Assembly (NCBI RefSeq): GCF_001528745.1 | Contig: NZ_BCNS01000002.1 | Coordinates: forward strand, 37,259 to 101,258 | Reading direction: 5' to 3' | DNA length: 64,000 nt | Source of the DNA: Marinobacterium profundum | GTDB taxonomy: Bacteria > Pseudomonadota > Gammaproteobacteria > Pseudomonadales > Balneatricaceae | Shown here: positions 5,067-58,271 of the stretch, in pieces | Layout: each line of letters begins with the position of its first letter | How positions within the stretch are numbered: the stretch's first letter is position 1 | Program-made: the position numbers and the translations under genes | Notes under the pieces: model-generated | Told to the model about the DNA's origin: nothing | The model's database searches: none | What the model saw: the letters and a program-made list of their open reading frames with translations, nothing else

Positions 5067-5915
5067 ATGCGTGAGACGATCCACTGGAGTCTTGCTGGCA
5101 CGGGAGTCGGCCTGAAAAGCTGCCATCTTGATGACATCATCAACGCAGGCGAGGATATTCGCTGGCTTGAAATCCTGCTGGATCAGCATTTGGTCAAGGG
5201 TGGCGCTGCACTGCACAGCCTTGAGCGGCTGCGCTGCAACTACCCACTCACCCTGCACGGTGCCGGTCTGGCTCTGGGATCCAGTGCCCCGCTGGACATG
5301 CACTACCTCGCCCGCATCAAGCACATGGCCAATCATCTGGATGCCAGCTGGATATCCGATCATGTCTCCTTCGGCACTCTGGGAAACTGCTTCAGCCATG
5401 AGCTTCTGCCCCTGCCCTACACCGAGGAAGCGCTGGATCACATCTGCGCGCGCATCCAGCAGGTGCAGGAATACCTCGGCCGGCGCATCCTGCTGGAAAA
5501 TCCCGCCTGCTACCTGGGCTATAATCACTCCACCATCTGCGAAGGCGAGTTTCTGGCCGAAATGGCGCAACGAGCGGATTGCTATCTGCTGCTGGATCTT
5601 AACAATTGCTATGTAACCCAGTACAACCTGGGAGTTGATGCCGAGCAAACCCTGGCGCGGCTGCCAGCCAGCCGGGTACGTGAAATTCACCTGGCGGGCT
5701 TCGATGACCAAGACACCTATCTGCTGGATGGCCACAACTGCGCGGTACATGAGCCGGTCTGGGCACTCTATGAACAGGCCCAGCAGCGGTTCACCGCCAC
5801 CCCGACACTAATTGAATGGGAGCACGATACCCCGCCGCTACCCGTCATTCTGAATGAGGTCAGCCGTGCCCGGCAGATCATGCAGCAACATATAGATGCC
5901 CGAAGGCGGTACTGA
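5067..5915 (+). CDS. MNIO-family (DUF692, BufB-like) iron enzyme
   Basis: 282 residues matching the DUF692 TIM-barrel family of multinuclear non-heme iron oxidative enzymes. These include MbnB of methanobactin synthesis and the bufferin maturases. Family landmarks are present: LTLHGAGLALGS, SDHVSFG, ILLENPACYLG with the metal-binding Glu, LLLDLNNCYVTQYNLG, REIHLAGF, VHEPVWALYE and IEWEHDTPPLPV. These enzymes oxidise Cys, Asn or Asp side chains of ribosomal peptides with O2. The next gene, DUF2063, starts in a 1-nt TGATG overlap, giving the usual enzyme plus partner pair. No classical Cys-rich BufA precursor is seen nearby; a 32-aa frame upstream is the only candidate. Confidence 0.88.
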   Translation: MRETIHWSLAGTGVGLKSCHLDDIINAGEDIRWLEILLDQHLVKGGAALHSLERLRCNYPLTLHGAGLALGSSAPLDMHYLARIKHMANHLDASWISDHVSFGTLGNCFSHELLPLPYTEEALDHICARIQQVQEYLGRRILLENPACYLGYNHSTICEGEFLAEMAQRADCYLLLDLNNCYVTQYNLGVDAEQTLARLPASRVREIHLAGFDDQDTYLLDGHNCAVHEPVWALYEQAQQRFTATPTLIEWEHDTPPLPVILNEVSRARQIMQQHIDARRRY

Positions 5916-6706
5916 TGCGGCTCGCCGATTTGCAGGCGGCGCTGCAGGCCGAAATGGAAGGCGAACCCAGTACCGAATTGCGTCAGCTCGTTACCAGCTC
6001 AAGCCTGGCACCCGAACAGTGCCTGCAGCTCTATCGGGATCTGCAGGCCCGGGCGCAAACCCAGGCGCTGCAGCAACTATACCCGGTCACCGCCCGACTG
6101 CTGGGGCCACAACTGTTTGCGGCCCTGAGTCAGCAGTACAGTCAGTCTTTGACCCGCCCTGATAATAACGGGGTGTACGGTGACGGCTTTGCGGAGCTGC
6201 TTGAACAGTGTACTGAACGACACGACAGCCTGCGACATCTGCAATTTCTGCCAGAGCTGGCCACACTGGAATGGACCCTGCACCTTGCCTGGTGCGCCGG
6301 TGATGATCCGCCGTTGAGTTTTGACTCCCTGATATACATCCCTGAGTCCGAGCAGTATCGCCTGCGTCTGGTACCCAGCCAGGCGCTGCAGCTATTGCAC
6401 TGCAGCTGGCCGGTGCTGGAAATCTGGCACAGCCATCAGCACGACAACAGCACTGAGCTGCATCTGAGTTATCGTCCACAATGGCTGTGCGTGTATAGAC
6501 AGCTCGACAGCCCCCAGGTCGAATCCCTCACTGAGGTACAGGCATCCTTACTGAACGGCATACTGCGCGGTGACACCCTGTATCAACTAGGGCGCGCCGT
6601 ACCGGACATCAATCAACACCTGAGCATGCTAATCTCTCGCCGCTGGATCACCCACTTCAAGCTGCCGCCCGATGTAACTGCTGCTGATAATTCGCGCAAG
6701 GGCTGA
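5915..6706 (+). CDS. DUF2063 (BufC/HvfC-like) partner of the MNIO enzyme
   Basis: 263 residues. The N-terminal ~95 residues (MRLADLQAALQAEM ... LYRDLQARAQTQALQQLYPVTARLLG) match the DUF2063 'putative DNA-binding' domain, which in MNIO systems acts as the substrate-peptide recruiting partner. The C-terminal half is a variable domain. It is translationally coupled to the MNIO gene (TGATG). The domain name is historical; a DNA-binding role is not indicated by context. It ends 28 bp from the convergent photolyase gene. Confidence 0.82.
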   Translation: MRLADLQAALQAEMEGEPSTELRQLVTSSSLAPEQCLQLYRDLQARAQTQALQQLYPVTARLLGPQLFAALSQQYSQSLTRPDNNGVYGDGFAELLEQCTERHDSLRHLQFLPELATLEWTLHLAWCAGDDPPLSFDSLIYIPESEQYRLRLVPSQALQLLHCSWPVLEIWHSHQHDNSTELHLSYRPQWLCVYRQLDSPQVESLTEVQASLLNGILRGDTLYQLGRAVPDINQHLSMLISRRWITHFKLPPDVTAADNSRKG

Positions 6707-35096: not shown

Positions 35097-35172
35097 TGGC
35101 GTCCCATAGGGGGTTCGAACCCCTGTTACCGCCGTGAAAGGGCGGTGTCCTGGACCACTAGACGAATGGGAC
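35097..35172 (-). tRNA. tRNA-Glu (anticodon UUC)
   Basis: 76 nt including an encoded CCA. Acceptor GTCCCAT/ATGGGAC, anticodon loop CTTTCAC giving UUC, T-loop GGTTCGAACC. Last of five tRNAs transcribed from the promoter at 35651-35679. Confidence 0.97.
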
Positions 35173-35195
35173 TGACTGAATCCCCGGATGAGGAT

Positions 35196-35271
<76 letters not shown>

Positions 35272-35304
35272 TGATTTTCTGTTAGCCGAACGGCTGTCAG
35301 AAAG

Positions 35305-35380
35305 TGGCGTCCCATAGGGGGTTCGAACCCCTGTTACCGCCGTGAAAGGGCGGTGTCCTGGACCACTAGACGAATGGGAC
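35305..35380 (-). tRNA. tRNA-Glu (anticodon UUC)
   Basis: 76 nt, identical in sequence to the Glu copies at 35097 and 35547. The array repeats a Glu-Gly pair, implying tandem duplication. Confidence 0.97.
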
Positions 35381-35420
35381 TTACAAACTCCTCTTGCGAG
35401 GAATGTCCTCTTTCGAGGAT

Positions 35421-35496
<76 letters not shown>

Positions 35497-35546
35497 TGAA
35501 CGCTTGCGCGCTTACCGTATTTCTGCAGGCTGTACCTGGCATGAAA

Positions 35547-35622
35547 TGGCGTCCCATAGGGGGTTCGAACCCCTGTTACCGCCGTGAAAGGGCGGTGTCC
35601 TGGACCACTAGACGAATGGGAC
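35547..35622 (-). tRNA. tRNA-Glu (anticodon UUC)
   Basis: 76 nt including CCA; first tRNA of the five-gene array, 29 nt downstream of the promoter -10 element. Confidence 0.97.
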
Positions 35623-50958: not shown

Positions 50959-51171
50959 ATGTCTCAATCACCCTCAATGGCTCCCGGCGAGCGCCGTATT
51001 CTTCGGCGCGAGGAAGTGGAAGCCAAGACTGGTTTCAAACGCGCCCATATTTATAACCTGATGAAGAAAGGCGACTTCCCCAAGGCGCTGCGTATTGGAG
51101 TTCGCGCTGTCGGCTGGGATTCAGACGAGATCGACCAATGGATTGCCGACCGGCTCAATAACCGGGCCTGA
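50959..51171 (+). CDS. alpA: AlpA-family transcriptional regulator
   Basis: 70 residues from ATG 50959 (AAGGAG at 8 nt; the GTG at 50950 falls in the ribosome site). The AlpA pattern is clear: RRILRREEVEAKTGFKRAHIYNLMKKGDFPKALRIG and VGWDSDEIDQWIADRL. AlpA proteins are small MerR-like HTH regulators that head the parA-parB operon of ICEclc-type elements. It is first of the plus-strand core operon. Confidence 0.93.
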   Translation: MSQSPSMAPGERRILRREEVEAKTGFKRAHIYNLMKKGDFPKALRIGVRAVGWDSDEIDQWIADRLNNRA

Positions 51172-51214
51172 TTCGGCACCTATGAACGCCTTTTCTATCC
51201 ACAAGGAGAACGCC

Positions 51215-52093
51215 ATGCAGGTGGTATCCATTATCTCGACCAAAGGTGGTGTGGGTAAAACCACCACCGCCGCCAATCTGGGTGGTCTCGCCGCCGATGC
51301 TGGCCTGCGCGTGTTGTTACTCGACCTGGACGTGCAGCCGACACTGTCATCCTACTTCGAGCTGACCCACCGCGCGCAGGGCGGCATTTATGAGCTATTG
51401 GCGTTCAACGAACAAAGCCTCGAGCAGCTGGTGTCCCGCACGGCGGTCACGGGCCTGGATGTGGTGCTATCCAACGACGACAGAGGTGATCTGAATACGT
51501 TGCTGCTGCATGCCCCCGATGGGCGCCTGCGGTTGCGCCATCTGTTACCCATGCTGGCGTCGCGCTATGACCTGGTACTGATCGACACCCAGGGCGCACG
51601 CAGCGTGCTCCTGGAAATGGCGGTACTGGCCTCCAATTTGGCACTGTCACCTGTCACGCCGGAGATTCTGGCGGCGCGCGAGCTACGCCGCGGTACACTG
51701 CAGCTGATCGACGACCTTGCCCCTTACCGTCACCTGGGCATTAACCCACCGCCTTTGCACCTGCTTATCAATCGGGTGCACCCCGTTTCAACCAATGCAA
51801 GGCTGATCCACCAGTCACTGCGACACGTGTTCCAGGCGCGCAGCGGTGTGCAGGTTCTGACTGCCATCGTCCCGGCCATTGAAACCTACCCCCGGGCATC
51901 GACCAGGCGTTTACCGGTACACCGTATCGAGCAGCGCGCACCCACCGGTCGCGTGGCGCCGGCCGCACTCGATACCATGCGCACGCTGGCCTGCGAGCTG
52001 TTCCCGGCCTGGTGCGACAAGTTCGCGTCCGTGACCGGTAAACCCCAGACAAACGGCGAGACGCGGAGTGACGATAATGGCCCGCGCCTATAA
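51215..52093 (+). CDS. parA: ParA-type partition ATPase
   Basis: 292 residues from ATG 51215 (AAGGAG at 6 nt). Deviant Walker A STKGGVGKTTTAANLGGLAA, Walker A' LLLDLDVQPTLSSYF and LVLIDTQGARSVLLEMA. With ParB it maintains the excised or replicating ICE in growing cells, as studied for the ICEclc family. The 3' end overlaps shi. Confidence 0.94.
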   Translation: MQVVSIISTKGGVGKTTTAANLGGLAADAGLRVLLLDLDVQPTLSSYFELTHRAQGGIYELLAFNEQSLEQLVSRTAVTGLDVVLSNDDRGDLNTLLLHAPDGRLRLRHLLPMLASRYDLVLIDTQGARSVLLEMAVLASNLALSPVTPEILAARELRRGTLQLIDDLAPYRHLGINPPPLHLLINRVHPVSTNARLIHQSLRHVFQARSGVQVLTAIVPAIETYPRASTRRLPVHRIEQRAPTGRVAPAALDTMRTLACELFPAWCDKFASVTGKPQTNGETRSDDNGPRL

Positions 52094-52328
52094 AGTCGCG
52101 CGCGGCCACAAGCGGCTGCGCGCACTGATCGCATTTGCCCTGAACGAAGGTTGGTGCATCAAACGCACACCGGGCGGCCATCTGAAATTTAGCAAGCCCG
52201 GCCACGCCTCGATCTACACCAGTTCCACCGCCAGCGACCACCGCGCCAGCTTGAACGCCCGCGCCCAGCTTCGCCGCGCGGCCAGACAGGCAACGGGCAG
52301 TACTTCTGATGAGTGCAGGCATGAATGA
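52077..52328 (+). CDS. shi: Shi-position small protein, HicA-like
   Basis: 83 residues from ATG 52077 (GGAG at 8 nt), overlapping both parA and parB. In ICEclc the small gene shi lies between parA and parB. The sequence RGHKRLRALIAFALNEGW, IKRTPGGHLKFSKPG and IYTSSTASDHRA resembles the HicA mRNA-interferase fold (dsRBD-like), with GGH at the position of the catalytic His. No HicB is adjacent, so toxicity is uncertain; an RNA-binding role is inferred. Confidence 0.75.
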   Translation: MARAYKVARGHKRLRALIAFALNEGWCIKRTPGGHLKFSKPGHASIYTSSTASDHRASLNARAQLRRAARQATGSTSDECRHE

Positions 52329-53982
52329 GCTAACGCCAGAACAGATGGCGACTGAGCTGCTGGCCGAAAGCTTCGAACGCAACGGCCCTGCTGCCAACAC
52401 CTTGAGTGATCCGATCGCCGACACCCCAATGGTGGTGACACTCGACCAGTTGCGTCCCTATGACCATGATCCGCGCGTCAAGCGCAATCCGGTCTACAAC
52501 GAGATCAAGGCTTCGATCCGCGAGCGGGGCCTGGATGCGCCGCCAGCAATCACGCGACGCCCCGGTGGCGAGCATTTTATCATCCGCAACGGCGGCAACA
52601 CCCGACTGGCGATCCTGCGAGAGCTTTGGGCTGAGACCCGGGAGGAACGCTTCTTTCGGATTGCCTGCCTATTCCGCCCCTGGCCGGAGCGCGGCGAGAT
52701 CGTCGCCTTGACAGGCCACCTGGCCGAGAATGAACTGCGCGGCGGCCTGACCTTCATCGAGCGGGCTCTGGGGGTGGAAAAAGCCCGCGAGCTCTATGAG
52801 CAGGAGCGCGATGGCACGCTGTCCCAGTCCGAATTGGCCCGTCGCCTGAGTGCAGATGGCTATCCGGTGCAGCAATCGCATATCAGCCGCATGCATGACG
52901 CCGTGCGCTACCTGCTGCCGGCGATTCCGAACCTTCTCTACGGCGGGCTGGGCCGGCATCAAGTCGAACGGCTCGCTGTGATGCGCAACGCCTGCAAAAG
53001 GATCTGGGAACACCACACCGCCAAGCGTGACGTGGGAATGGAGTTCGAATCGCTGTTCCAGGACGCGCTGGCACAGTTCGATACCGAGCCGGATGGCTTC
53101 TCCGCCCAGCGGGTACAGGACGAAATGATCGGTCAGATGGCCGAACGACTGGATGTCGACTACGACGCCCTGAGCCTGGATCTGAATGAAAGCGAACACC
53201 GGCAACGCGTGTTAACCCGCGAGCCGTCTCCTATCGAACCCGAACTTTCGATGCATCCTTCGCCTCCCTTCACACCACACCCGAGGGTCGAATCCCCCAC
53301 GACCGCATCGGCCCAGCCAGATAAAACACCCGTCACACAGCCTTCGACTTCAACGCCACAAGGCGGCACGGCCGAACTCGGGAACGTAGCACAAGACGAT
53401 ACCTCGCTGACAGGTAGCCTCGTGCAGGAGCATATAGTGTCCGAGGCGCCCACGACCAACCGGCTCCAGTCCATTCAACGCCTGATGGCCGAGCAAATAG
53501 GCGACGAGGCGTCGCCCGACTTCGAGTCCAGGGTGCTGCAGGCGATCCCGATCCAGGCCGGTGGGCTGTATCCCATTTCAGATGTCTGGTACATCGAGCC
53601 AGGTCTTAACGTACCGGACAGACTACGGGCACACATCGCACAGTTCGCGCGGGAAATTGCCAGCGAAGCGTCGATCGCCGACTACATCGTGCCTCGTGAT
53701 GGCGGCATCGGTTTTACCTGTGTACTACCGCCCACGAGTGAACTGCAGGCGTTGCCGCCCTTTCCCGGTACGGTTCTGGTCCTGCTGCTGTCGCTGAACG
53801 GTGAAGCAGCGGCGGCCGTTACAGGCCTGGAGCGAGGATTGCTGTCCAACGAATTGGCAACCCTGCTGTACGGCCAGGGCGATCCGGACCGACGGCTGAG
53901 CGACACGGCGCTCGTCAAACTGTTCCGTCTATTGCGCCTGGCGCGACGACTGTTTGATCTTGAGGCCGGCAATGCAGATTGA
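52309..53982 (+). CDS. parB: ICE-class ParB partition protein
   Basis: 557 residues, long for ParB but typical of the PFGI-1/ICEclc class. An N-terminal ParB/Srx domain (~38-120) has VVTLDQLRPYDHDPRV and FIIRNGGNTRLAILREL. An HTH-containing central domain (LSQSELARRLSADGYPVQQSHISRM) follows, then a Pro/Ser/Thr-rich linker (~295-395) and a C-terminal domain (~400-555) of unknown role. It starts within shi, so parA-shi-parB are translationally coupled. Confidence 0.9.
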   Translation: MSAGMNELTPEQMATELLAESFERNGPAANTLSDPIADTPMVVTLDQLRPYDHDPRVKRNPVYNEIKASIRERGLDAPPAITRRPGGEHFIIRNGGNTRLAILRELWAETREERFFRIACLFRPWPERGEIVALTGHLAENELRGGLTFIERALGVEKARELYEQERDGTLSQSELARRLSADGYPVQQSHISRMHDAVRYLLPAIPNLLYGGLGRHQVERLAVMRNACKRIWEHHTAKRDVGMEFESLFQDALAQFDTEPDGFSAQRVQDEMIGQMAERLDVDYDALSLDLNESEHRQRVLTREPSPIEPELSMHPSPPFTPHPRVESPTTASAQPDKTPVTQPSTSTPQGGTAELGNVAQDDTSLTGSLVQEHIVSEAPTTNRLQSIQRLMAEQIGDEASPDFESRVLQAIPIQAGGLYPISDVWYIEPGLNVPDRLRAHIAQFAREIASEASIADYIVPRDGGIGFTCVLPPTSELQALPPFPGTVLVLLLSLNGEAAAAVTGLERGLLSNELATLLYGQGDPDRRLSDTALVKLFRLLRLARRLFDLEAGNAD

Positions 53983-54006
53983 GGATTCTGAGCCAGGGAG
54001 GCCACC

Positions 54007-54567
54007 ATGTCGTCACCACATCCGCTCAACCAGGCCGTGATCGCCCAGGCATTGCACGACCTGCGCAACGGCCAGCTACGCCGCTGCAAAACGATGGGCT
54101 TCGGTGAAACGGAGCTCGAAGCGCTGAAGCATCCGGCCATGGTGAGTGTGCTTGTGAATGCGACTGTGTCCTGGTGTTCAGTTTCGATCAACCGCGATGT
54201 TCTCAAAAGATTACTGAACCAGGCGCAAGACGTGGAACAGGAAATAGCCAAGGTGGATCGCATGTTGCGGCTCGGCGCCAGTACCGAAATGGTCAGTGGG
54301 TTTTACGGCCTCACCCACCAGGAAATCGCCTTGCGACGAGACGTGCTCGGCCTGCCGAAACGCAAGGGGCGTCACCCGGTGCTCGACGAGCAACAGGATA
54401 CGGCGCTGTGGCAGCGCTGGAGACAACTCACTACGCAAAGGGGCGTTGAAGCGGACGATGCCGCGTCCATGCTGGATGTCGCCATGGATCTGTCGGAAAG
54501 CATGACACTGCCCTTGTCAGTGGTCTGGGCGGCCATACGAAACTGGATTGACCAGGCATTGGAATAG
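54007..54567 (+). CDS. DUF2857 ICE protein
   Basis: 186 residues matching DUF2857, a family confined to SPI-7/PFGI-1-type islands directly after parB. Conserved parts: AVIAQALHDLRNGQLRRCKTMGF, RLGASTEMVSGFYGLTHQEIALRRDVLGL (a likely HTH) and a helical C-terminus. It may act as a FlhC-like regulator or DNA-binding accessory; in ICEclc-type elements genes near here influence transfer activation. The exact role is not readable. Confidence 0.85.
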   Translation: MSSPHPLNQAVIAQALHDLRNGQLRRCKTMGFGETELEALKHPAMVSVLVNATVSWCSVSINRDVLKRLLNQAQDVEQEIAKVDRMLRLGASTEMVSGFYGLTHQEIALRRDVLGLPKRKGRHPVLDEQQDTALWQRWRQLTTQRGVEADDAASMLDVAMDLSESMTLPLSVVWAAIRNWIDQALE

Positions 54568-54570
54568 GCC

Positions 54571-55803
54571 ATGGCGGCGGATGATCCATCCCGGCATTTA
54601 AGCCCCGTCCCGCTCTCCGACCTCTTTGATGGCGTCCTGAAACAGCTGGCACCCACAGAGCAAGACGCCACCGCGCACGGCGACGGCATTCTCTACAGTG
54701 GCAACCGTCACGAGAGCGTGCCTCGAGCGCTGTTTCTCGACACCCGCCTGACTCCGCTGGAGCGCAATGCCTGGCAGGTATTCCGGCTGCTGCTTAACGA
54801 CCATGGCGTCACCACCCTGCCCACCTACGATCAGCTGCGGCCCTATCTGGCCTCCATGCCCTGCGGTGCCCGCGCCTCTCATGAAACCGTGGCCCGCGCC
54901 CTGACGCTGCTGCGGCTAACGCGCTGGCTCAGCCTGGTGCGTCGGCGCCGCGACCCGAGATCGGGACGTATCCTGGGCAATTTATATGTACTGCATGACG
55001 AGCCTTTGACCCCGTTTGAGGCGATGCAGCTCGATGCGGACTACCTCGGTCTGGTCAGCCAAGCGCTCGATCACGCCGCCAAAGCAGTCCGGACCGTCGG
55101 CCTGAACGCCCTGAAAGAGATCGCCGATGATCCGCTGCTCAGTGGCCGCACCTTGCCAACCCGCCTGCAGGTTTTGGCGCAGCGAATGACTGACCACGAC
55201 ATGGATTCAAAACACCATCAACAGGACGGGGCGATGCGTGATTCCGAAGAAGGCTCCACCACCCTTCTTCGGAATCAGGAACCCCGTCTTCGGAATCAGA
55301 AAGGCCTCGCTTCGGAATCCGAACCAGGGTCGAAAGCCCCAGCTGACGGCAGGCTTCGGAATCCGAAGGAGGACCGTACTGTAAGTAATAGTAATAATAA
55401 AATACGTATACCGCGCGCACGTGCGCACGAGGGGCTGCAATTGCCCGAACGCTTCACGCGCCTGAAAGACGAGCAGCAGGCCGGCGTCCTGGTGGCGCTG
55501 CAACAGCTGGACGAGACACTGCAGCAGGCCGTGCTTGACGAATGGGACGCCCGCTGCCTGGCTGACACCATCCGTAATCCCGCCGGTTACCTGTTCGGCA
55601 TCATCCAACGTGCCCTTCAAGGCGAATTCAACGCCTGGCTCGGTCCGGCGGTGGCCGCCTCGCCCACCGCAAAGCCACAATCGCCGTCACCACGACCACC
55701 GCCAGCATCATCAACGCCATCAAGGTCGAAACCGAAAGTCGCCCCGCCTGAGGTCGCCCTGGAATACCTCGCGAGGTTGCGTGAGTTTCTGCGCGATAGC
55801 TAG
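54571..55803 (+). CDS. STY4528-family island replication protein
   Basis: 410 residues, start 3 nt after the DUF2857 stop. An N-terminal winged-helix region (~45-135: LTPLERNAWQVFRLLL, THETVARALTLLRLTRWL-like segment, LVRRRRDPRSGRILGNLYVL) resembles plasmid replication initiators. A low-complexity middle (~220-285) carries repeated LRNQ/LRNP, and a conserved C-terminal domain (~290-345) has VLDEWDARC and NPAGYLFGIIQRALQGEF. The repeat segment coincides with DNA iterons and an AT-rich tract, as in initiator genes that contain their own origin. Probable initiator of ICE replication after excision. Confidence 0.82.
   Translation: MAADDPSRHLSPVPLSDLFDGVLKQLAPTEQDATAHGDGILYSGNRHESVPRALFLDTRLTPLERNAWQVFRLLLNDHGVTTLPTYDQLRPYLASMPCGARASHETVARALTLLRLTRWLSLVRRRRDPRSGRILGNLYVLHDEPLTPFEAMQLDADYLGLVSQALDHAAKAVRTVGLNALKEIADDPLLSGRTLPTRLQVLAQRMTDHDMDSKHHQQDGAMRDSEEGSTTLLRNQEPRLRNQKGLASESEPGSKAPADGRLRNPKEDRTVSNSNNKIRIPRARAHEGLQLPERFTRLKDEQQAGVLVALQQLDETLQQAVLDEWDARCLADTIRNPAGYLFGIIQRALQGEFNAWLGPAVAASPTAKPQSPSPRPPPASSTPSRSKPKVAPPEVALEYLARLREFLRDS
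55240..55410. repeat. Iteron array plus AT-rich tract (candidate origin)
   Basis: Five copies of the 10-mer CTTCGGAATC: one inverted at 55240-55249, then direct copies starting at 55267, 55288, 55310 and 55354, i.e. spacings of 21, 22 and 44 bp. The last forms a dyad CTTCGG-AAT-CCGAAG. Directly after, 55381-55410 is ~83% A+T in an otherwise GC-rich gene. Iterons in helical phase followed by an AT-rich element is the layout of lambda and plasmid origins. Confidence 0.5.
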
Positions 55804-56016
55804 ACGGTCATCAGAGTGCTGACGCTGGCAACGTAACCCTCAGTGGAACGCCCTGGCGTTATCCCCAGGGGATAGCTCGCGCCAGCCATGCCTTCAGCCA
55901 TACCTTCAGCCATACCTTCGACAAATCCGGGAACGCTTCAGGTTCCTTTAGTTGACTGACAGCCTTCCGGTTGATGGCGATGCTATCGACTCGTTACTCA
56001 ACCGCGAGTCCTCACC
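55804..56016. repeat. Spacer with DnaA-box-like palindrome and 12-bp repeats
   Basis: Contains TATCCCCAGGGGATA at 55860-55874, the same 15-bp palindrome as in the 116-bp repeats at 57.9-58.3 kb. Three tandem 12-mers follow (AGCCATACCTTC, the first with one change) at 55884-55919. No gene. Confidence 0.7.
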
Positions 56017-56838
56017 ATGGCAAACACAGGACCACTACAACTCAACCTCGGGTCACTGCGCAGCGCGATGTCGCTGACGCTGCATACCCATCATGCGTCG
56101 CGCATCTGGCACGGCCGGGCCGCTGCCGAGGGCAAGCCTGCGATCGTCGGCCTCAACGGTTTCATCGCCGTGATGAACAAGATGAAACGGGGTGCCGAGC
56201 AGGACGACCCCTACAGCGATTGGTGGATGCTTCGCATCGAGGAGAAGCTGGAGCAGACCAAAGCGACCCTGCAGTCGCTGCGTGAACAGGTGGACCAGGC
56301 GCTCGCGACGGTACCGTCCGCCCTCAGCCTGGGGGAAAACCTCAACGTTCAACCCGTCAAGCTGCCGCTGTTCGTCAATGCCCAGCTGGGCTTTGCGGCG
56401 GTCTACCTCCTGGCGGACTACGACGATCTCGCACGCAAGCTCATCCTGGCCCACCACACCGCACTGATCGACCGTAGCACACTCGAACGCTGGCTCAATG
56501 ACGGCGCCCATGCGCTGCGCAGCTTGTTCTCGCTGGCCCAGCAATACCGCTACTCCGGTTGCTGCCGTGACGATTTCGCGGCCAACAATGCAGCAGCCCG
56601 GGCGGCGCTGGAAAAGTTTGGAGCGCTGCCGCAGGACGTATTGGAGGGAACGCAGCGATCAGGCTTCGCACCACCGATCATGCGGCGGGCAAACCAGCAC
56701 CATGTCGATGCCGATGCCGATGCCGATGCCGATGCCGATGCCGATGCCGATGCCAGCAAGTCTGAGCCTGACGATACGCAGGGCGATACCTCGACATCGG
56801 TCGACGCCACTGGCACCAACGGGGAGGACTCAGCATGA
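56017..56838 (+). CDS. PFL_4669-family ICE protein (TIGR03761-like)
   Basis: 273 residues. The first ~215 residues follow the PFL_4669 integrating-element family: GSLRSAMSLTLHTHHASRIWHGR, GLNGFIAVMNKMKRGAEQDDPYSDWWMLRIEEKL and LPLFVNAQLGFAAVYLLADYDDLARK. The C-terminus is a (Asp-Ala)8 run and an acidic tail specific to this copy. The stop overlaps the DUF3158 start (ATGA). Function unknown; in this cluster it belongs to the replication/maintenance set. Confidence 0.88.
   Translation: MANTGPLQLNLGSLRSAMSLTLHTHHASRIWHGRAAAEGKPAIVGLNGFIAVMNKMKRGAEQDDPYSDWWMLRIEEKLEQTKATLQSLREQVDQALATVPSALSLGENLNVQPVKLPLFVNAQLGFAAVYLLADYDDLARKLILAHHTALIDRSTLERWLNDGAHALRSLFSLAQQYRYSGCCRDDFAANNAAARAALEKFGALPQDVLEGTQRSGFAPPIMRRANQHHVDADADADADADADADASKSEPDDTQGDTSTSVDATGTNGEDSA
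56707..56754 (+). repeat. In-frame hexanucleotide repeat (GATGCC)8
   Basis: Eight perfect GATGCC units coding for (Asp-Ala)8 near the end of the PFL_4669-family gene. Such repeats slip during replication, changing length by two residues per step without frameshift. Confidence 0.9.
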
Positions 56839-57377
56839 CGGAACAGGCTCAACATCAACGGCGGTATTTCCAGCCGTTGCAACAGGAAGACTTCCTGCGC
56901 CTGGAACACGCAGCCTATCTAAAAGGCCTTTTAAAGCCTTTTAAAGGTAACGGGAGTCTGGAGGACTGGGCCAACCAATGCCACGCGCTGCGAGACAGTT
57001 TGATTGCATTGGCGCAACGGCGCGTACTGCCACAAGTGAGCGGTTATCCGTTCCGGCTGCTACCCGTCGAACTGGCCCAGCAGACCACTGGCGCAGGCAC
57101 TACCTTTCTGCGCTGGCGCAAACCCGACCGTTCCGCGATGGGCGTAGCGCTGTGGCAGGCGATGATGGACAGGCCCGGCACGCCGGTCCATTTGCTCGCT
57201 GACCTGCTAGCGCTCGAGCACCAGCGCATCACGCTGAACATGCAGATCAGCCTGCTGCACAGCCTCGGGCGTCAAGCCCATGACTGCGCCAACAAGATGG
57301 CCGCGGCTGATGCCGCGTACCAGCAGCGCCTGGCGGTACCTTCCATCACTGCGTCAGCGGATCGGCTGCCACCCTAG
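56835..57377 (+). CDS. DUF3158 ICE protein (InrR position)
   Basis: 180 residues in the DUF3158 family: FLRLEHAAYLKGLLKPFKGN, SLEDWANQCHALRDSL, TTFLRWRKPDRSAMGVALW and LHSLGRQAHDCANKMAAA. It is directly upstream of ssb, the position where ICEclc carries the integrase regulator inrR, so it may be the counterpart; I cannot confirm identity by sequence. The basic, Trp/Arg-rich centre suggests nucleic acid contact. Confidence 0.83.
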   Translation: MTEQAQHQRRYFQPLQQEDFLRLEHAAYLKGLLKPFKGNGSLEDWANQCHALRDSLIALAQRRVLPQVSGYPFRLLPVELAQQTTGAGTTFLRWRKPDRSAMGVALWQAMMDRPGTPVHLLADLLALEHQRITLNMQISLLHSLGRQAHDCANKMAAADAAYQQRLAVPSITASADRLPP

Positions 57378-57914: not shown

Positions 57915-58271
57915 GACCTTGCCACGTTATCCCCAGGGGATAATTCCACCGACGTCCACTGCAATCCGCGCGCTCCGAGCAGGAGGCTTGCGTACAACAT
58001 ACCGCTGCGTACCGAACAAACCCGCTCTGCTACCTTGCCACGCTATCCCCAGGGGATAATTCCACTGACGTCCACTGCAGTCCGCGCGCTCCGAGCAGGA
58101 CACTTGCGTACCAAAATCCGCTGCGCACCGTGCAAACTCACTCTGCTACCTCGCCACGTTATCCCCAGGGGATAGTTCCACTGACGTCCACTGAAATCCG
58201 CGCGCTCCGGGCAGGAGGCTTTCGTACCAAAATCCGCTGCACACCGAGCAAACTCACTCTGCTACCCTGCC
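57915..58271. repeat. Three 116-bp tandem repeats with palindromic cores
   Basis: The palindrome TATCCCCAGGGGATA occurs at 57928-57942, 58044-58058 and 58160-58174, exactly 116 bp apart. The rest of each unit is also conserved (GACGTCCACTG, TCCGCGCGCTCC, CGTACCAAAATCCGCTGC-like parts), and a truncated fourth unit starts near 58259. TTATCCCCA is one base off the DnaA box TTATCCACA. The repeats lie between ssb and topB and hold no gene. Confidence 0.92.

What the first reader, a model, noticed from the sequence alone, without database searches (positions are those of the whole stretch)
55240..55410. Origin-like iterons and AT-rich tract inside the ICE replication gene
Seen: five copies of CTTCGGAATC, four direct with spacings 21, 22 and 44 bp (two helical turns or a multiple) and one inverted, followed 17 bp later by a 30-bp tract of ~83% A+T in a GC-rich gene. 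Known: phage lambda's O gene and several plasmids hold iterons plus an AT-rich unwinding element within or next to the initiator gene. Inference: the STY4528-type protein is the initiator and its gene carries oriV, explaining how the excised ICE replicates.
Basis: partly seen in the sequence, partly recalled or inferred. Interest (0 to 1): 0.75.

Follow-up and report, generated by a model that had tools for sequence, protein, structure and literature searches.

The report
Replication origin inside an initiator gene
A mobile DNA element in this bacterium carries, inside the gene of one of its own predicted replication proteins, repeated DNA words and an A+T-rich stretch that close relatives preserve at the DNA level beyond what the protein needs; it is likely the start point from which that protein would copy the element once it leaves the chromosome.

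Summary
In detail: five exact CTTCGGAATC copies (one inverted, one in another reading frame) and an 83% A+T 30-mer lie inside the STY4528-family gene at 54571-55803. The repeat is part of an odd palindrome, TTCGGNNNCCGAA. 67 of 70 near relatives keep its layout (centres 32, 22, 44 bp apart). In 49 near genes synonymous diversity is 0.01 in motif codons and 0.14 in A+T-dyad codons, against 0.47 elsewhere; the 15 most constrained windows all fall in 55198-55414. Distant homologues (22-47% identity) hold the same or other palindromes in this linker, spaced in helical phase, and an A+T rise follows in 41 of 42 genes. The protein is predicted as a winged helix, a disordered linker encoded by this DNA, and a helical C-domain. 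pSK41 RepA and RepC (repABC) likewise carry their origins inside their genes. Most likely this is an in-gene oriV bound by STY4528. Binding and replication are untested, and ICEclc also needs its relaxase and oriT1. The palindrome core was printed in 2009 as a putative oriV repeat of PFGI-1, whose authors saw no Rep protein. A second palindrome downstream is a candidate parS.

The parts
51095..52093 (+). ParA-type ATPase gene (partition), upstream in the same module
   Evidence: Pfam AAA_31 E 2.5e-26; ParA-like NCBIfam hits below their cut-offs
52309..53982 (+). ParB-family gene (ICE_PFGI_1_parB)
   Evidence: TIGR03764, 395.5 bits against cut-off 143.75
54007..54567 (+). DUF2857 gene
   Evidence: PF11198 E 2.5e-61
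54571..55803 (+). STY4528-family gene, proposed initiator: predicted winged helix (about residues 45-147), helix 158-186, disordered linker about 210-285, C-terminal helical domain about 293-350
   Evidence: NF040582, 395.4 bits against cut-off 130; AlphaFold2 model, mean pLDDT 65.9
55198..55414 (.). Block of lowest synonymous diversity in the gene: proposed minimal oriV
   Evidence: The 15 lowest 10-codon windows lie here
55240..55249 (-). Iteron site I (inverted half-palindrome)
55267..55276 (+). Iteron site IIa (half-palindrome); near relatives have at most one site II
55288..55297 (+). Iteron site IIb (half-palindrome), 21 bp from IIa
55310..55323 (+). Iteron site III: full palindrome TTCGGAATCCGAA at 55311-55323, in another codon phase
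55354..55367 (+). Iteron site IV: full palindrome TTCGGAATCCGAA at 55355-55367
55378..55410 (+). A+T-rich tract with TAA/TAG triplets; in many relatives an A+T core inside a GTA-rich dyad; proposed unwinding element
   Evidence: 82% A+T; A+T rise in 41 of 42 genes, but the window's own dyad is no better than chance; low synonymous diversity in near relatives
55860..55874 (.). Perfect palindrome TATCCCCAGGGGATA just after the gene: candidate parS or other partition/regulatory site
57928..58174 (.). Three more exact TATCCCCAGGGGATA (57928, 58044, 58160; 116 bp apart) between the SSB and TopB genes: candidate parS array

Best explanation
The segment 55198-55414 is likely the vegetative replication origin of the integrative element, lying inside the gene of its own predicted initiator. 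Shown here: repeated palindromes in helical phase followed by an A+T-rich tract, kept at DNA level across near relatives, in the stretch that encodes the predicted disordered linker of the STY4528-family protein. Inferred: dimers of the N-terminal winged helix bind the palindromes and bend or stack the DNA; the neighbouring A+T core melts; the C-terminal domain, with the element's own DnaB where one is encoded or the host helicase otherwise, loads the replisome. Because the linker is predicted to be disordered, the protein can tolerate the DNA words that the origin needs. Several subgroups have changed their palindrome, as would be expected if binding domain and site change together and set compatibility.
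For: Synonymous diversity 0.01 in motif codons (n=15) and 0.14 in dyad codons (n=15) against 0.47 in the rest (n=281); Mann-Whitney p 1e-10 and 4e-6; 49 genes left after collapsing 71. Scan of 311 informative codons: the 15 lowest windows all fall in 55198-55414. Layout 32/22/44 in 67 of 70 distinct near proteins. Palindromes (up to 2 mismatches) in 11 of 12 fetched plasmid/phage records, including pKLC102. Repeat pairs exceed all 500 synonymous shuffles in 19 of 32 distant genes; palindrome families exceed all 200 in 14 of 32. Control, same repeat test with 300 shuffles: STY4528 35 of 92; neighbour genes 14 of 234 (ParB 2 of 71, DUF2857 0 of 36, TopB 0 of 24, PFL4669 6 of 50, DUF3158 5 of 34, SSB 1 of 19). 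Spacings in phase, R 0.74 at 11 bp. A+T rise after the iterons in 41 of 42. Winged-helix model; rows to initiator N-domains; HTH_36 in 13 of 52 family members. Precedents: pSK41 RepA (PMC5703833, passages), RepC (PMC3155836 and PMC6090056, passages). pZDHY95-VIM-2 shows no other annotated initiator, in a gene table that the tool calls incomplete.
Against: No binding, unwinding or replication data. The window's own dyad is not better than chance (144 of 200 synonymous draws reach it) and 21 of 42 genes miss the 10/200 level. In the near clade the repeat-pair statistic exceeds all shuffles in only 23 of 84 genes and the palindrome statistic in none of the 25 tested; the case there rests on layout and synonymous constraint, which shared ancestry inflates. 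In one search the median observed/expected ratio of DUF3158 (2.41) is as high as that of STY4528 (2.19), and the window's PFL4669 also exceeds all shuffles. L006, L008 and L154 gave no palindrome family and L011 only a spurious one. No DnaA box, with up to 1 mismatch, in the gene. ParB occurs in 35 of 37 carriers, so parS is not excluded. The structural rows barely pass the level that the tool calls common, and Foldseek gave none at E <= 0.001. ICEclc replication depends on TraI/oriT1. Earlier authors' putative oriV of about 1.1 kb also takes in the downstream intergenic repeats. pPant4 carries another replication initiation protein.
Confidence: 0.8

Rival explanations
1. The in-gene palindromes are the centromere (parS) of the linked ParB, not the initiator's sites.
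For: Clustered palindromes next to parA-parB; TIGR03764 ParB is found in 35 of the 37 genomes or records given, within about 6 kb and on the same strand in 34 of those 35; repABC parS sites are GTT...AAC palindromes and can lie in genes (PMC9040568, passages).
Against: A second palindrome family sits downstream, where Rhodobacterales repABC replicons often keep parS: TATCCCCNGGGGATA (up to 1 mismatch) in 78 of 80 near loci, other palindromes, repeated in part, after the gene in most of 17 further loci looked at. An A+T-rich tract follows the in-gene sites. Iteron distance follows the initiator's N-domain after ParB is held fixed (partial 0.24, p 0.008), not the reverse (0.07, p 0.25); but the two protein distances correlate at 0.94 (n=33), so this is weak.
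Confidence: 0.1
2. They are operators through which STY4528 or another protein controls transcription, not an origin.
For: Helically phased palindromes suit cooperative repressors; initiators often autoregulate (recalled).
Against: The sites start about 670 bp into the gene; no sigma-70-like promoter was found in 53900-56100 (0 found, 0.6 expected); an A+T rise next to the last site is the rule (41 of 42).
Confidence: 0.05
3. The true oriV is the downstream intergenic palindrome array, which the PFGI-1 authors counted into their putative oriV (for pKLC102 the location is recalled only), or replication runs from oriT by the relaxase; the in-gene sites only assist or regulate. Not exclusive of the main reading.
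For: PFGI-1: a putative oriV of about 1,100 bp immediately upstream of PFL_4669 with palindromes in both halves (PMC2647930, passages); ICEclc amplification needs TraI and oriT1.
Against: The pKLC102 array is only 31% A+T and the window's STY4528-PFL_4669 intergenic DNA holds one such palindrome. The A+T-rich half of the PFGI-1 oriV has the same palindrome core as the in-gene sites, so the published region may include the in-gene origin. ICEclc mutants still showed a few cells with 4 copies.
Confidence: 0.15
4. It is a peptide repeat in a low-complexity linker with no DNA role.
For: The linker is predicted disordered and three of the five copies encode LRN.
Against: One copy out of frame, one inverted; synonymous diversity close to zero in motif codons; different peptides and codon phases over the same DNA word in relatives.
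Confidence: 0.01

Closest known systems
RepA_N initiators (staphylococcal pSK41 RepA)
   Different: No Pfam family matches the window protein. The C-terminal domain shows a RepC-like motif and no DnaD match among its rows. Proteobacterial ICEs; par genes upstream of the initiator.
RepC of repABC replicons
   Same: Gene order parA-parB-rep; origin inside the rep gene with an A+T-rich region and an imperfect dyad (PMC6090056, PMC3155836, passages); weak profile matches, in the same order along both proteins but found in separate comparisons, of the HTH (E 5e-4, probability 32) and of a C-terminal NPxGYL..GEF motif (E 5e-6, probability 86, 28 columns); palindromes downstream as with Rhodobacterales parS.
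   Different: RepC origins lack iterons; the ICE genes have clear ones. Similarity is below family level. DUF2857 lies between parB and the rep gene.
Putative oriV of PFGI-1 and related islands
   Same: Four direct repeats of a palindrome with the same TTCGGAATCCGAA core in an A+T-rich half upstream of PFL_4669 (PMC2647930, passages). pKLC102 has four such sites inside its STY4528 gene.
   Different: In the passages seen, that paper does not say that the repeats lie in a rep gene and states that PFGI-1 encodes no Rep protein.
Phage lambda O / ori-lambda
   Same: Initiator bound to four iterons (PMC10797057, passages); that they lie inside the O gene is recalled.
   Different: No homology shown; other gene context.
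DnaA-trio elements of chromosome origins
   Same: TAG/TAA triplets beside initiator sites (definition: PMC10797057, passages).
   Different: No DnaA box here; in many relatives the triplets form a dyad; no function shown.

Membership tests
STY4528_fam (NF040582) | Profile match over the curated cut-off | tested here: met
   395.4 bits against 130, residues 38-355
STY4528_fam (NF040582) | ICE module context (ParB, DUF2857, PFL_4669, TopB, STY4534) | tested here: met
RepA_N initiators | Pfam/NCBIfam profile match | tested here: not met
   0 Pfam families for the window protein at E up to 0.1 and up to 1; only STY4528_fam in NCBIfam
RepA_N initiators | Winged-helix N-domain of this fold | tested here: inconclusive
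RepA_N initiators | Iterons inside the gene between N- and C-domains | tested here: met
   (sequence only; binding untested)
RepA_N initiators | DnaD-like C-terminal domain | tested here: inconclusive
RepC / repABC | RP-C profile match | tested here: not met
   RP-C_C weak in 10 of 52 family members (best E 0.024), none for the window protein
RepC / repABC | parA-parB-rep gene order | tested here: met
   (DUF2857 intervenes)
RepC / repABC | Origin inside the gene without iterons | tested here: not met
   Iterons present
RepC / repABC | Initiator acts only in cis | not testable with these tools
   needs mini-replicons
Iteron-type oriV | Phased repeats beside an A+T-rich tract | tested here: met
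Iteron-type oriV | DnaA box near the iterons | tested here: not met
   No match with up to 1 mismatch inside the gene; nearest at 55859; many but not all such origins have one (recalled)
Iteron-type oriV | Initiator binds the repeats; autonomous replication | not testable with these tools
   bench work

The most novel reading that the evidence does not exclude
STY4528 proteins are a family of RepC/RepA_N-like initiators that carry their origin inside their own linker-coding sequence in the SPI-7 / pKLC102 / ICEclc-type mobile elements of Proteobacteria. Lineages have their own palindromic iterons, which change together with the winged helix and set compatibility. The GTA-rich dyad around the A+T core, with TAG/TAA triplets, is a strand-loading element of the DnaA-trio kind used in both directions. 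The downstream arrays that were counted into a published oriV are the centromere. These ICEs are thus repABC-like replicons that can also live integrated.
Probability: 0.35. Interest if true: 0.85.

Novelty: new variant of a known kind. Interest (0 to 1): 0.72.

Why it matters
This large ICE family spreads catabolic and resistance genes across Proteobacteria, yet in the papers I could see its vegetative origin is only postulated, and one says that no Rep is encoded. A 217-bp interval, a named protein and silent-mutation tests make the question directly answerable. It may also give a way to type compatibility of these elements by iteron, and it is a clear case of one DNA stretch that looks to be under two selections: a disordered linker and an origin.

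Tried and rejected

The 10 paper searches, seen as listings, showed no paper reporting iterons inside STY4528 genes or STY4528 binding; two papers that mention STY4528 were not opened, many papers are not held, among them the pKLC102 sequence paper. Of all papers cited I saw passages, none in full.

Full report
What is there. The window holds an integrative element module in the order ParA (51095), ParB (52309), DUF2857 (54007), STY4528 family (54571-55803), PFL_4669 (56017), DUF3158 (56835), SSB (57449), TopB (58382), STY4534 (61801). Inside the STY4528 gene lie five exact CTTCGGAATC and, starting 17 bp after the last one ends, a 30-mer of 83% A+T. The copies are not a peptide repeat: one is inverted and one lies in another codon phase. 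Two belong to complete odd palindromes TTCGGAATCCGAA, found at no third place in the 5.64-Mb assembly.

Near relatives. In 70 distinct near proteins the palindrome centres are 32, 22 and 44 bp apart in 67 (4 of these with a further chance match 355 bp on); 3 lack site II. The window has an extra 21-bp stretch with one more site. In 71 near genes, collapsed to 49, normalised synonymous diversity was 0.01 in 15 motif codons, 0.14 in 15 dyad codons and 0.47 in 281 others (motif columns set from L031). A scan of 311 informative codons put the 15 lowest windows in 55198-55414. Columns share ancestry, so the p values are indicative, but the contrast is within the same genes.

Distant relatives. The 13-mer with free centre occurs, with up to 2 mismatches, in 11 of 12 plasmid or phage records fetched; ICEhin1056 lacks it. 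Genes without it often have other palindromes in the same linker, for example AGTTCC-N5-GGAACT in ICEhin1056. In 41 genes that I chose by hand, 37 gave at least two similar palindromes, 3 gave none (L006, L008, L154) and 1 a spurious pair (L011) (no null was run for that step); many fit a 23-bp frame CCnAGTTC-N7-GAACTnGG with a changing core. Against synonymous shuffles, 19 of 32 distant genes exceed all 500 for repeat pairs and 14 of 32 exceed all 200 for palindrome families. In the same loci, neighbour genes exceed all 300 in 14 of 234 cases against 35 of 92 for STY4528; PFL4669 (6 of 50) and DUF3158 (5 of 34, with a median ratio as high as STY4528) are the noisiest. In the near clade these whole-gene statistics are weak (23 of 84; none of the 25 tested).

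Spacing. 66 spacings under 90 bp (near clade collapsed to the window, L118 and L011 dropped, some doubtful sites of L016 left in) are in phase with R = 0.74 at 11 bp, phase 0.03; a null with only 20 independent spacings reached this in 0 of 2000 draws. Periods from 10 to 11.5 are not resolved. 59% of spacings are multiples of 3, so part is shaped by the frame; the commonest, 44, is not.

A+T tract. The 60 bp after the last iteron is more A+T-rich than the gene in 41 of 42 genes (start set by hand in eight; L018 is the exception). In many it is a core inside GTA-rich inverted arms (GTACAGTACGTA ... TACGTACAGTAC, or GTAGTAGTAG ... CTACTACTAC). 21 of 42 are better than chance at 10/200 or less, 16 at 2/200 or less; the window itself is not (144/200). 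The triplets recall DnaA-trios, a lead only.

Mechanism. pSK41 RepA binds Rep boxes inside its own gene and the linker they encode is dispensable (PMC5703833, passages). RepC replicons have their origin inside repC, abolished by silent mutations of the A+T region (PMC3155836, passages). The ICE gene combines both: RepA_N-like iterons and repABC-like gene order. I infer that STY4528 dimers bind the palindromes and open the adjacent A+T core.

Rivals. parS: ParB is found in 35 of the 37 genomes or records I gave to (within about 6 kb in 34), and partial Mantel tests favour the initiator only modestly (0.24, p 0.008 against 0.07, p 0.25; n=33; L016, L155, L144, L011 and L013 left out). But a second palindrome family lies downstream: TATCCCCNGGGGATA in 78 of 80 near loci and a 57-bp array in pKLC102, with arrays or single palindromes in most of 17 others looked at; Rhodobacterales repABC replicons often keep parS there (PMC9040568, passages). 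Relaxase: ICEclc amplification needs TraI and oriT1, with a few cells still amplified without them (PMC6561031, passages). Both routes may exist.

Prior work. Mavrodi and colleagues (author name recalled; PMC2647930, passages) printed the same palindrome core as four direct repeats in the A+T-rich half of a putative oriV of PFGI-1 and stated that no Rep protein is encoded. ICEHin1056 also has a postulated iteron-like oriV (PMC2258188, passages). New here, as far as the searches go: the location inside the STY4528 gene, the DNA-level constraint, the lineage-specific iterons across the family, and the link to RepA_N and RepC architecture.

I corrected the number of sites in near relatives (67 of 70, not all), the identity range (22-47%), the hand-set starts (eight), the wording on neighbour controls and on the published oriV.

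Noticed in passing
55860, 57928, 58044, 58160: Four exact copies of the palindrome TATCCCCAGGGGATA in intergenic DNA, three of them 116 bp apart; at least one copy (up to 1 mismatch) in 78 of 80 near loci. Candidate parS or regulator site.
   Followed up: partly
L111 about 5368-6130; L120, L122, L126 downstream of the STY4528 gene: Arrays of 17-23 bp palindromes in repeats of 36-72 bp after the initiator gene; in pKLC102 (L111) the repeats are 57 bp.
   Followed up: partly
56707-56754: A run of GATGCC repeats in the PFL_4669 gene encoding an Asp-Ala tract; the gene's 9-mer repeats exceed all 500 synonymous shuffles.
   Followed up: no
56922-56947: Repetitive AAAGGCCTTTTAAAGCCTTTTAAAGG near the start of the DUF3158 gene; 5 of 34 DUF3158 homologues exceed all shuffles for repeats.
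   Followed up: no
L020, L022 (and L028, possibly a gene cut by a contig end): Replication-like proteins matched only over the C-terminal domain also carry GTAG/CTAC dyads in their genes, so the dyad may be wider than this family.
   Followed up: no
L131 and L144 (overlapping stretches of one genome): A second, short STY4528-like frame of 172 aa follows the full-length gene.
   Followed up: no
35097-35622: Cluster of five tRNA genes (Glu, Gly) upstream of the module; element ends were not mapped.
   Followed up: no
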